Virus record (IMG/VR): IMGVR_UViG_3300026534_000036 | Coordinates: 1-21,770 of that record | DNA length: 21,770 bases | Source: a virus | Strand: one strand, 5' to 3' | Shown here: positions 61-17,793 of the stretch, one piece after another | Position numbering within the stretch: the first letter of the stretch is position 1 | Layout of the letters: each line of letters starts with the position of its first letter | Position numbers and translations under genes: made by a program | The notes under the pieces: generated by a model | What the model was told of the DNA's origin: nothing | The model's database searches: none | What the model saw: only the letters and a program-made list of their open reading frames with translations

Positions 61-106
61 TGGTGGAGCTGAGCGGGATCGAACCGCCGACCTCCTGAAT
101 GCCATG
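61..106 (-). tRNA. 3' half of tRNA-Ala(GGC), partial; phage attachment site
   Basis: The minus strand carries the CCA end, the 3' acceptor strand, a complete T-arm (loop TTCGATC), the variable loop AGGTC and an anticodon loop ATGGCAT with anticodon GGC. This closely matches bacterial tRNA-Ala. Identity stops in the anticodon stem: the 5' strand pairs at only three positions and no D-arm or 5' acceptor strand follows. A tRNA 3' fragment next to an integrase gene is the classic footprint of integration into a tRNA gene. The intact tRNA should lie at the far end of the element, outside this window. The exact crossover point cannot be set from one junction. Confidence 0.85.
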
Positions 107-153
107 CAGCCGGTCATTGTTTTCTTGCCCTCTATTCATGGCTTTTTTTGTTG

Positions 154-210
154 AACCGGATAACATTTTTGTGCTTAAATGACAAGAAATGTTATCCGGT
201 TTTGTTATCC
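154..210. repeat. Inverted/direct repeats beside att; possible integrase or excisionase arm sites
   Basis: A perfect 15-bp inverted repeat (AACCGGATAACATTT at 154-168, its complement at 187-201) is followed by another copy of its core. The heptamer GTTATCC therefore occurs three times in 53 bases: inverted at 158-164, direct at 191-197 and 204-210. It lies 50-100 bases inside the tRNA fragment, where arm-type integrase sites usually sit, and overlaps the last codons of the integrase. A terminator is less likely, because no T-run follows on the integrase strand and only a short one on the other. Confidence 0.45.
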
Positions 211-1262
211 ACCACCAACCTGATGATCTTTTTATTGTCATCTTTTTCATTGGGAAGATCAGGCAAAAGATTTACGGCCCTTTGTTTTTCCCCATGCAAA
301 AGGTGATAATAAACGTCGCTTGTCATTTTGGTGCTTGAATGCCCGAGGATTTTAGAGACCGCGGCTAAATCGGCACCACCGGCAAGCATTACTGAAGCGA
401 AAAGATGCCGGAGATCATACATCCGAACAGGATATTTTATCCCGGCTTTTTTACATGCTGTCTTAAAGGAACGTCTTAATTGTTTGATCGGTTTCCCATT
501 ATATTCAATAAGGTATGGGGTGGAGGCAACCCTTTTCATTTCAAGCAACCTTTGTCTGAACGTCGCTCTTATAGGAACCTCGCGCCACGTTTTAGTTTTT
601 CGTCCGTACACACGGACCACCCCGGCTTCAAAATCAACTTGATCCCAGCGAATAGAGAAAAGCTCACTGGGGCCGGGACGGGTCCCAAGATTCCACTGGA
701 CTTCTATGGCCCATTTAAGATGAGGCGCGGCATGTTTATATATCTTTTGAAGATCATGGACAGTGAGAAGTGTTTGTCTTGGCACTTCTTTTGCTTTTTT
801 CCACGTCGCGAGGGGATTATTGTGTGTTAATCCATGTTTAATTCCAAAATTAAAAATAGCATTCATATAGGATAAATACCTATTCCTAGTGGATTGACTA
901 CGGTCTTTATAATATTCAGCGACTCTCATTACATCTTTATACGTAAGATGATCGACGGGTTTATTGGGGAGGATGGGAGCTATATGATTACGAATCAAAT
1001 TTACAAGTTCTTTAATATATTTTTTAGACCCTCCATTAGCTTGACAATTTTTGACATATTCTGCTGTCAAAGCGACAAAATTTGTCGATGCAGTAGCTCC
1101 AACTTGCCTGCCAAGTTTTTTCTTGGCTTTTATTTCAAAATCAAAAGCTTGGGCAAGTTTTTTCGCACCGGAACCACGACCAAAAGTCCTAGTTCGCTGT
1201 TTCCCGGACGAATCACGATAGCTTGCATACCAACGTCCGTCTGGTTTTTGATGAACACTCAT
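192..1262 (-). CDS. int: Tyrosine recombinase/integrase
   Basis: This 356-residue protein should integrate and excise the element at the adjacent tRNA-Ala site. The N-terminus (about 1-55) resembles a small arm-binding domain, residues about 60-155 a SAM-like core-binding domain, and 165-335 the catalytic domain. Visible catalytic residues are R195 (in TRPGPSE), a lysine at 222 or 224, R285 and H286 in YDLRH, H308 in LGHSS, and a nucleophile at Y318 or Y319. The first histidine of the usual HxxR box is a tyrosine, a common phage variant. The start overlaps the stop of the excisionase-like gene (ATGA), so the two are translationally coupled and probably expressed from the promoter at 1537-1566. 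Length and domain order are normal for phage integrases. Confidence 0.95.
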   Translation of the reverse strand: MSVHQKPDGRWYASYRDSSGKQRTRTFGRGSGAKKLAQAFDFEIKAKKKLGRQVGATASTNFVALTAEYVKNCQANGGSKKYIKELVNLIRNHIAPILPNKPVDHLTYKDVMRVAEYYKDRSQSTRNRYLSYMNAIFNFGIKHGLTHNNPLATWKKAKEVPRQTLLTVHDLQKIYKHAAPHLKWAIEVQWNLGTRPGPSELFSIRWDQVDFEAGVVRVYGRKTKTWREVPIRATFRQRLLEMKRVASTPYLIEYNGKPIKQLRRSFKTACKKAGIKYPVRMYDLRHLFASVMLAGGADLAAVSKILGHSSTKMTSDVYYHLLHGEKQRAVNLLPDLPNEKDDNKKIIRLVVDNKTG

Positions 1263-2374: not shown

Positions 2375-3292
2375 ATGCCTGCTAAATGGTTTATTTGTCC
2401 TGATGGGCAATGGACGAAAATCAACGAATGTTATGAAAAATGTAGAATGCACCAAAGATGTATGACCATTGAAACCTTAATGGAAATAGGAAGGGAAAGA
2501 AAATGGACTGGCGTACCAAGCGTGACCCAACTCCTAAAAGGAACTCGCCAGGCATACCTTGAAATCAGGAAAGATTATGCAATCGACCCACAGGATCAAG
2601 CATTTTCACTCCTGGGAACAAAACATCACCTCAAACTTGAAAAAAATCTCATAAACACACCAACACTTTTAGAGGTTGGAATGTCAGAATTTGGTATTAG
2701 CGGGATAGCGGATCATTATGACGCAGAATCACAAATATTAACTGATTACAAAACGAGCGGAAGTTATAAAGTTGCTAAAGTGGTTGGGATTGTCAAGATA
2801 ACCCGGGAAGAACCAATTTTAAGGCCAGATGGCACACCACTTATACTGAAGTCAGGTAAAAATAAGGGAAAACCCAAAACTAGAAAAATTACTTCATTTG
2901 AAATAAGGCCGGAAACGAGAGATGGTTTTGATTGGGATATGCAGTTGAACATGTATCGAATCTTTTTTGAACGAGCCGGGTTTAAGGTCAAAAAGATGCA
3001 GATACAGGCAACAGTAAGAGATGGAGGAACCTACATTGCTAAACAACGTGGCATTGATAAGAACATTTATTTAATTCCAATTCCGTTTATAAACGATAAT
3101 GATGTTATTATTTACTTCAAATCAAAAGCCGATGATCTTTTATGGGCACTACAAAATGAGGTTATGCCTTATAGATGCTCGGATTATGAATCATGGAAAG
3201 GGAGAAGATGTGAGAACTATTGCCCGGTTAGCGCTTATTGCTCACATTATGAAGAAACTGGAAAAGAAGAGGATCTTTTTTTTATTCAATAA
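2375..3292 (+). CDS. RecB/Cas4-like PD-(D/E)XK nuclease with two cysteine modules
   Basis: This is a 305-residue member of the RecB/Cas4/AddB nuclease class, likely a DNA exonuclease of the phage recombination module. The nuclease core shows H84/H85, D113 in GIADHYD, D124-Y-K126 (DYKTS) and the Q190-xxx-Y194 motif. The N-terminus has cysteines C8, C19, C23 and C29, and the C-terminus C268, C279, C283 and C289. Both sets have the spacing C-X10-C-X3-C-X5-C. The C-terminal trio fits the iron-sulfur cluster ligands of Cas4/AddB; a complete second set at the N-terminus is unusual. Residues about 135-180 form a basic insertion. It is the first gene of the early operon, followed by a second nuclease and a Rad52-like protein. 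Confidence 0.85.
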   Translation: MPAKWFICPDGQWTKINECYEKCRMHQRCMTIETLMEIGRERKWTGVPSVTQLLKGTRQAYLEIRKDYAIDPQDQAFSLLGTKHHLKLEKNLINTPTLLEVGMSEFGISGIADHYDAESQILTDYKTSGSYKVAKVVGIVKITREEPILRPDGTPLILKSGKNKGKPKTRKITSFEIRPETRDGFDWDMQLNMYRIFFERAGFKVKKMQIQATVRDGGTYIAKQRGIDKNIYLIPIPFINDNDVIIYFKSKADDLLWALQNEVMPYRCSDYESWKGRRCENYCPVSAYCSHYEETGKEEDLFFIQ

Positions 3293-16104: not shown

Positions 16105-16349
16105 AGAGAAAAGACGATACGGTTGAACTTGGTTTGTTTGAGCTTGGTGGGATTATTTCACAGGCAAATTACGGGGAACCATTTATTATTGATGCGTTTA
16201 TAGAAACACTAGCGAGTATCCTTAAAACACATGACGTTATTGGGGACCATAACGAAGTTGGTGCTTTTGATCCAGGGAAACGGATACGCAAGATTGTAAT
16301 TGCACTAGATAAAACCATTGTACCGGAGGATGGATGCTATATTCATTAA
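16101..16349 (+). CDS. Hypothetical protein, 82 aa
   Basis: The start is a TTG overlapping the preceding TGA, with GGAG about ten bases upstream; no in-frame ATG exists near the N-terminus. The protein is acidic and mostly helical in the middle (FIIDAFIETLASILKTHDVI), with a GKRIRKIVIALD strand. It overlaps the endolysin gene by 16 bases. Its place directly before the endolysin suggests a late function, but nothing in the sequence shows one. Confidence 0.5.
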   Translation: MKRKDDTVELGLFELGGIISQANYGEPFIIDAFIETLASILKTHDVIGDHNEVGAFDPGKRIRKIVIALDKTIVPEDGCYIH

Positions 16350-16780
16350 TCCAGGGATTTGAACATTGGAGTGAATTAGACCTTTTAACTGCAACGATAC
16401 TCGGTGAAGCAGAAGGCGAGCCCTGGGGTGGGAAGGCTGGGGTTGCTATTACTATTAAGACCAGGGTTGATCATCCAAGGTGGTGGGGTAGAAATTGGAG
16501 GGAGGTTATTTTAAGGGCGACACATGACGGAATTGCTCAATTTGAATGTTGGACTAAACCCCACAGGATAGAACGGATGGAACTTGGCAGGGAAAGGGGA
16601 TGTGACGATAAAATATGGGAACAATGCCGTCAAATAGCAATATTTTGCTATCTAGGGAAAATACAAGATAGACTTGGATGTCCGACTCATTATTGTAGGA
16701 TTGATGCTAAACCTGCGTGGAAGGAAAAACTAAAGTTTCTCGGGCAAATCGGCCACCATTTATTTTATTCTGAAATATAA
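16334..16780 (+). CDS. SleB-type cell-wall hydrolase, probable endolysin
   Basis: The 148-residue protein matches the SleB/Hydrolase_2 fold, whose members are lytic transglycosylases that cut peptidoglycan. LTATILGEAEGEPWGGKAGV (18-37) contains the likely catalytic Glu at residue 25, and conserved tryptophans, AQFECW and the C-terminal GHHLFY follow. There is no signal peptide, so it needs a holin for export; a membrane protein is encoded 90 bases downstream. GGAGG precedes the ATG. Confidence 0.85.
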   Translation: MLYSLIQGFEHWSELDLLTATILGEAEGEPWGGKAGVAITIKTRVDHPRWWGRNWREVILRATHDGIAQFECWTKPHRIERMELGRERGCDDKIWEQCRQIAIFCYLGKIQDRLGCPTHYCRIDAKPAWKEKLKFLGQIGHHLFYSEI

Positions 16781-17095: not shown

Positions 17096-17116
17096 ATATC
17101 AAAGAGGGGTTTTAAA

Positions 17117-17269
17117 ATGCCGATTCATTTAATTAAGGGTAAATGCTACCAATGGGGAACCCACGGGAAAGTATATTGAGGAAAGGGGGCTAAGGCCAAG
17201 GCCGGGCGCCAAGGGAGAGCAATCAAGGCGAGTCAATCCAAAAGGAGAGGGCGTAAAAGAAAAAAATGA
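17117..17269 (+). pseudogene. Small basic phage protein frame interrupted by an in-frame TGA
   Basis: The frame starts with a good ribosome binding site (GAGGGG) and encodes CYQWGTHGKVY. It meets TGA at 17177-17179, then continues for 29 more codons as GKGAKAKAGRQGRAIKASQ plus a very basic tail. It ends in a TGA that overlaps the next ATG (17266) in the ATGA arrangement seen elsewhere in this phage. From memory, small phage proteins have this W-G-x-x-G-K-V-Y / GKGAKAKA / QGRAI composition, which supports one original reading frame. TGA is a normal stop in other genes here, so the options are nonsense mutation, read-through or selenocysteine. No clear SECIS hairpin follows. Confidence 0.6.
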
Positions 17270-17793
17270 ATAAAGCTGAACAATATAACATTAAACTCCA
17301 ATATGGAGATGTTTTTGCATCATCTAATCATGCTTTAGACGCCAAGATTATTGATTTCGTGGAAAAAATATGGAGCCACGACAACGAGGCCTACTACAAT
17401 CACACTGGAATTATAATCAACCCGGACGGCACAACGCTTGAGGCGCTTCTTACTGTGAGATCCCAGAATATTTATCGTGCCTACCATGGCCGTAAAATTA
17501 TCATAGCACGCTGGAAGTATATGAATCATGAAACATTCCATTTGGCATTCCAGGGCATTAAGAGGGAAATCGGCAAACTATATCCATTATGGCGGCTCCC
17601 GCTCCACATTATACCACCACTAGCAAAATATCTTGGTTTTGGCCATATGGTTTGTTCTGAATTAGTGGCGAAATTCCTTTATTTGGCCGGGGCACGTTAT
17701 TCACAATACCAGGGAACCAACCCGGATACCCTTGTTGATGAATGGCGCTACTGGAGGTCATATGAAATAATTTTTGAGGGGGTCCTGAAATGA
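17266..17793 (+). CDS. Permuted papain-like (YiiX/NlpC-P60-type) protein
   Basis: The 175-residue protein has the order of a circularly permuted NlpC/P60 fold: QYGDVFASSNHA at 12-23, then H46 in NHTGII and E59 in LEALL, and the presumed catalytic C130 late in MVCSELVAKFLYLAG. Such proteins are amidases, peptidases or lipid hydrolases. In a late phage region it could act on peptidoglycan during entry or lysis, or on lipids. It is coupled to its neighbours by ATGA overlaps on both sides. There is no signal peptide. Activity is inferred from the Cys-His-Glu pattern only. Confidence 0.65.
   Translation: MNKAEQYNIKLQYGDVFASSNHALDAKIIDFVEKIWSHDNEAYYNHTGIIINPDGTTLEALLTVRSQNIYRAYHGRKIIIARWKYMNHETFHLAFQGIKREIGKLYPLWRLPLHIIPPLAKYLGFGHMVCSELVAKFLYLAGARYSQYQGTNPDTLVDEWRYWRSYEIIFEGVLK

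What the first reader, a model, noticed from the sequence alone, without database searches (positions are those of the whole stretch)
17117..17269. In-frame TGA in a small basic gene whose frame clearly continues
Codon 21 is TGA, yet the next 29 codons keep phage-protein-like composition (GKGAKAKA...QGRAI) and end in an ATGA overlap with the next gene. No start codon lies just after the TGA, so the basic C-terminus can only be made by read-through. Other genes use TGA as stop, so whole-genome recoding is unlikely. Possibilities are selenocysteine, regulated read-through giving short and long forms, or a recent nonsense mutation.
Basis: partly seen in the sequence, partly recalled or inferred. 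Interest (0 to 1): 0.65.

Follow-up and report, generated by a model that had tools for sequence, protein, structure and literature searches.

The report
Stop codon in a phage cysteine slot
A small gene of a bacterial virus has a stop codon exactly where its relatives keep one half of a cysteine pair; this is most likely a point mutation or an assembly error that cuts the protein short, but selenocysteine, the selenium-containing amino acid, cannot be excluded and would be new for such a phage protein.

Summary
An in-frame TGA (17177-17179) interrupts a 50-codon gene at codon 21, and the 29 codons after it are genuine. All 52 distinct homologous cores continue through the site, and every invariant column after the TGA is kept in the window. 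Which residue belongs there can be inferred. Every homologue core has either no cysteine or exactly two. In all 4 homologues with Cys at site 21 there is also Cys at site 10; in the 48 others there is neither. The window has Cys10 plus TGA21, so the TGA sits in a cysteine slot.

For selenocysteine: the Cys/TGA pairing, and a probable host group in which all 13 genomes tested have tRNA-Sec and SelB. Against it: no relative has TGA there, the downstream RNA fails the published bacterial SECIS model that 92% of sites taken as real Sec-UGAs in same-phylum genomes pass, the cysteine pair is dispensable and looks structural, and another family member is plainly broken.

Best verdict: a recent nonsense change, or consensus error, of a cysteine codon (about 0.57). 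Selenocysteine is the main rival (about 0.30). Regulated read-through is unsupported. Whole-genome recoding is rejected.

The parts
17117..17269 (+). interrupted 50-codon gene, homologous to proteins that match PHROG family 31267 (unknown function)
17103..17109 (+). AGAGGGG, likely ribosome-binding site of the gene
   Evidence: read directly from the sequence
17144..17146 (+). TGC, codon 10 (Cys10), partner of the interrupted site
   Evidence: Cys here only when Cys is at site 21: 4 of 4 versus 0 of 48 distinct homologue cores
17177..17179 (+). in-frame TGA, codon 21
   Evidence: homologues have T, K, R, C, Y, S, I or P here, never a stop
17180..17266 (+). 29 codons after the TGA; basic C-terminal helix with QGRAIKASQ motif
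   Evidence: conserved in all homologues; helix 25-47 in the model of L004
17186..17210 (+). RNA hairpin GG-GCU-GGC/GCC-GGC-CC, 4-nt loop CAAG beginning 17 nt after the UGA, -13.9 kcal/mol; does not meet the bacterial SECIS model
17266..17793 (+). next gene, start overlapping the end of the interrupted gene (ATGA)

Best explanation
The gene belongs to a family of small basic head-module proteins of tailed phages: a three-stranded N-terminal hairpin region followed by one long basic helix. In the window's lineage the hairpin carried a cysteine pair, Cys10 and Cys21, facing each other across two strands and probably forming a disulfide or a shared metal site. A recent single-base change of the codon for Cys21, or an error in the assembled consensus, produced TGA. 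Translation then stops after 20 residues and the helix is not made. The rest of the gene is still intact because the change is recent, or because it exists only in the consensus. Shown: the TGA, the conserved continuation, the cysteine coupling, the absence of TGA in relatives, and the failure of the SECIS model. Inferred: that the change is recent, that it inactivates the protein, and the disulfide or metal role.
For: Broken copies of this gene exist: L043 has a frameshift plus a TGA at a glycine position, about 1 in 70 loci. The best hairpin fulfilling the published bacterial SECIS constraints (PMC13188914) is only -4.9 kcal/mol against the required -7.5. In contrast, 23 of 25 in-frame UGAs taken as Sec sites in SelD/FlpD matches of same-phylum genomes pass and all are -6.1 or lower. 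The cysteine pair is dispensable: 31 of 52 homologue cores have no cysteine. That fits a structural role better than a catalytic one.
Against: If a random nonsense change hit this gene, only about 6% of the weighted possibilities would be a TGA at one of the two cysteines (2 of 34). All invariant columns after the TGA are intact, with no second lesion. The plain hairpin after the UGA is more stable than 98% or more of synonymous recodings, although not more than shuffles of the same composition (z about -1). The probable host group decodes selenocysteine.
Confidence: 0.57

Rival explanations
1. Selenocysteine: the host's SelB and tRNA-Sec read the UGA as Sec, giving a Cys10-Sec21 pair in place of the Cys10-Cys21 pair of relatives, and the full 50-residue protein is made.
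For: The TGA occupies a cysteine slot (4/4 coupling, never an odd number of cysteines), the pattern expected for Cys/Sec replacement (PMC13188914). The inferred host group, from integrase similarity and the tRNA-Ala attachment site, has tRNA-Sec and SelB above cut-off in all 13 genomes tested and many in-frame TGA selenoprotein genes. A hairpin starts 6 nt after the UGA with its loop at 17 nt, within the model's spacing, and is stabler than 98% or more of synonymous recodings.
Against: Loop CAAG has no G in its first two positions and the apical stem is 3 bp; the best model-satisfying hairpin is -4.9 kcal/mol, weaker than every one of 25 reference sites. No second TGA-bearing homologue. The cysteine pair is often absent in the family, so it is unlikely to be catalytic. 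The host was not identified directly.
Confidence: 0.3
2. Leaky or programmed read-through of UGA by a near-cognate tRNA, giving a short hairpin form and a long form, perhaps tuning translation of the overlapping next gene.
For: Intact frame after the stop and an ATGA overlap with the next gene; a stable hairpin just downstream of the UGA.
Against: No relative has a stop there; the short form would lack the only helix and the most conserved motif; UGA followed by G is not a known strongly leaky context (own knowledge).
Confidence: 0.08
3. UGA is reassigned to an amino acid throughout this phage.
For: None beyond this one codon.
Against: 11 other called genes end in TGA, and their in-frame continuations look like noise; no suppressor tRNA or other tRNA gene in the window.
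Confidence: 0.01

Closest known systems
PHROG_31267 (unknown function) and its unnamed relatives in phages of Roseobacter, Vibrio, Aeromonas and Streptomyces
   Same: Size, MP[VI]...[YW]G..GK.Y...QGRAIKASQ pattern and basic tail; in Roseobacter phage CRP-901 also packed in an overlapping gene string
   Different: The annotated relatives are uninterrupted; the window's own translation, even read through, scores below the reporting limit of the PHROG model
Phage Mu protein F-like minor head proteins with this module at their N-terminus (L016; L038 and L070 look similar)
   Same: The same small module forms the N-terminus; L016 has Phage_Mu_F at residues 216-320, E 1.4e-23
   Different: In the window the module is a separate gene, upstream of the terminase and portal genes
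Bacterial selenoproteins with Cys-containing homologues (SelD, FlpD/FrhD in the same phylum)
   Same: UGA at a position held by Cys in homologues
   Different: No bacterial SECIS by the published model, no second TGA homologue, no catalytic role known
Broken family member L043
   Same: Same gene with an in-frame TGA
   Different: TGA at a Gly position, plus a frameshift, so it cannot be Sec

Membership tests
Bacterial selenoprotein gene | In-frame UGA aligned with Cys in homologues | tested here: met
   Cys at the site in L004, L015, L082, L083, always together with Cys10 as in the window
[quoted passage not shown]
   Best is -4.9 kcal/mol; 23 of 25 reference sites pass. The paper notes that a subset of selenoprotein genes fails the model
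Bacterial selenoprotein gene | Other TGA-containing homologues | tested here: not met
Bacterial selenoprotein gene | Host has SelA/SelB/tRNA-Sec | tested here: inconclusive
   Host only inferred; 13 of 13 genomes of the inferred group have tRNA-Sec and SelB; SelA not searched
Bacterial selenoprotein gene | Sec incorporation shown in protein | not testable with these tools
   Needs proteomics or 75Se labelling
Small phage protein family of PHROG_31267 | Conserved MP[VI]..WG..GK.Y..(K)AK.KA..QGRAIKASQ core | tested here: met
   Up to 69-70% identity to homologues
Small phage protein family of PHROG_31267 | Match of the window protein itself to the PHROG profile | tested here: not met
   No match at E up to 1 with X or Cys at codon 21, while homologues L004, L002, L014, L042 and L057 match at 6e-6 or better
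Genome-wide UGA reassignment | UGA not used as a stop | tested here: not met
   11 other called genes end in TGA
Pseudogene by nonsense mutation | Further lesions or relaxed constraint after the stop | tested here: not met
   No second lesion; invariant columns kept. Expected to be absent if the change is recent or a sequencing error

The most novel reading that the evidence does not exclude
A temperate phage of a selenocysteine-decoding bacterium makes a head-module protein with a Cys10-Sec21 pair, using the host's SelB and tRNA-Sec and a SECIS hairpin outside the standard model. This would be a phage selenoprotein in a structural gene.
Probability: 0.28. Interest if true: 0.85.

Novelty: new member of a known kind. 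Interest (0 to 1): 0.42.

Why it matters
If selenocysteine were confirmed, it would show a phage spending selenium on a virion-associated protein and tying its development to the host's selenium supply; the papers searched here name no phage selenoprotein in the titles, abstracts and passages that I read. If, as is more likely, it is a nonsense change or consensus error, it is a useful warning that a TGA in a cysteine slot plus a selenocysteine-using host is not enough. Either way, the strict cysteine pairing gives a small untyped head-module family a structural hypothesis.

Tried and rejected
Whole-genome UGA reassignment: rejected, TGA is a normal stop. Arginine as the ancestral residue (CGA or AGA to TGA): R is common at the site in relatives (9 of 52), but Cys10 occurs only with Cys21, so Cys is favoured. 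Finding close relatives through the next gene, the terminase or the upstream 435-aa protein in IMG/VR: nothing. Finding the family in 395 genomes of the inferred host phylum: nothing. A second Sec site in the other cysteine-pair clade: no hit. Terminase in 39 genomes of one order: one weak relative. The window against annotated phage records by tblastn: no match. Viral fold library: only unnamed phage proteins. A first SECIS calibration misread loci on the minus strand and was replaced.

Full report
What is there. The window is a 21.8 kb IMG/VR virus record, apparently a temperate tailed phage. It has an integrase (192-1262, minus strand) beside a tRNA 3' part at 61-118. It also has replication genes, a cell-wall hydrolase (16334-16780, Pfam Hydrolase_2), a terminase, a portal, and a head maturation protease-like or head protein. 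The reported gene, 17117-17269, lies between the hydrolase and the terminase. The TGA at codon 21 and the open frame up to the overlapping ATGA are exactly as described.

The frame is real. Seventy IMG/VR loci encode relatives, and nearly all run straight through the site. In the alignment the columns after the TGA (A29, Q32-I36, and nearly K28 and K37-Q40) are conserved and all present in the window. Close homologues match PHROG 31267, unknown function, although the window's own protein falls below that model's reporting limit. In L016 the module is fused to the N-terminus of a Phage Mu F-like head protein, so a role in head assembly is the best guess; L038 and L070 look the same by eye.

Which residue belongs at codon 21. 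Across 52 distinct homologue cores the site holds T 17, K 14, R 9, C 4, Y 4, S 2, I 1, P 1. Cysteines come strictly in pairs: 31 cores have none, 21 have exactly two. Seventeen have a pair near sites 6 and 19; four (L004, L015, L082, L083) have the pair 10 and 21. Cys10 never occurs without Cys21 (Fisher p = 4e-6; the sequences are related, so this overstates independence, and two of the four were collected by asking for Cys21, though not for Cys10). The window has Cys10. The AlphaFold model of L004 (mean pLDDT 86) has strands 10-13 and 19-21, which puts residues 10 and 21 across from each other, and a helix 25-47; the facing is inferred from the strand limits, not measured. So the TGA stands in a cysteine slot and cuts the protein just before its helix.

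Sec or nonsense. For Sec: under random nonsense changes only 2 of 34 weighted outcomes would be a TGA at one of these two cysteines. The probable host group uses Sec: the integrase matches best in the phylum of a 'Deltaproteobacteria' MAG (47% identity in G772; 57% over part of the protein in G657, where it lies next to tRNA-Ala(GGC)) and among plasmids in Nitratidesulfovibrio. The integrase was not searched in other phyla. The tRNA-Ala attachment sequence is found at 1e-10 or better in 152 of 395 genomes of that phylum, against 29 of 377 in another. Thirteen genomes picked for these matches all have tRNA-Sec and SelB above cut-off, and a set of 25 that includes them has many TGA-bearing SelD and FlpD genes. 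The literature names Deltaproteobacteria as selenoprotein-rich and about a fifth of bacteria as Sec users (PMC1794560).

Against Sec: the published bacterial SECIS model (PMC13188914) was coded and calibrated. Of 25 in-frame UGAs taken as Sec sites in SelD/FlpD matches from those genomes, 92% pass and the weakest is -6.1 kcal/mol (one of the 25, L311, may not be a true selenoprotein); random positions pass in 37%. The window's best is -4.9. Its strongest hairpin (-13.9) has loop CAAG, without the required G, on a 3-bp apical stem. That hairpin is stabler than 98-99% of synonymous versions but not unusual for its base composition (z about -1), and 3 of 33 homologues without any UGA have one as stable or stabler in the same place. 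No other member has a TGA there. Another member, L043, is plainly broken by a frameshift and a TGA at a glycine, so damaged copies do appear in assembled contigs. The cysteine pair is missing in most of the family, which argues for a structural rather than catalytic role, and Sec is normally catalytic.

Weighing. The cysteine slot and the host raise Sec well above its low prior for a phage head-module gene; the missing SECIS and the lack of TGA relatives lower it. I put nonsense or consensus error at about 0.57, Sec at 0.30, ordinary read-through at 0.08 and others at 0.05. These numbers are judgement, not computation. The raw reads would settle the first question; I could not see them.

Noticed in passing
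L043:2960-3110: Another member of the family carries a frameshift near codon 10 and an in-frame TGA at a glycine position: a pseudogene or poor sequence.
   Followed up: yes
L016, L038, L070 around 3001-3100: The small module is the N-terminus of longer proteins; in L016 the protein is Phage Mu F-like (minor head protein).
   Followed up: partly
L021, L025, L032 and others (17 distinct sequences): A different, equally strict cysteine pair (about sites 6 and 19) occurs in another clade of the family.
   Followed up: partly
window 61-118 (minus): 3' part of a tRNA-Ala(GGC) beside the integrase, probably the attachment site; Rfam scores part of it as a weak tmRNA match.
   Followed up: yes
window 17180-17225: The stretch after the TGA is about 69% G+C in a 40% G+C phage, with more stable RNA folding than synonymous alternatives would give.
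   Followed up: yes
window 17266-17793: The next gene has H..G and C-S-E-L-V motifs reminiscent of YiiX/NlpC-P60-like enzymes, but no Pfam match.
   Followed up: no
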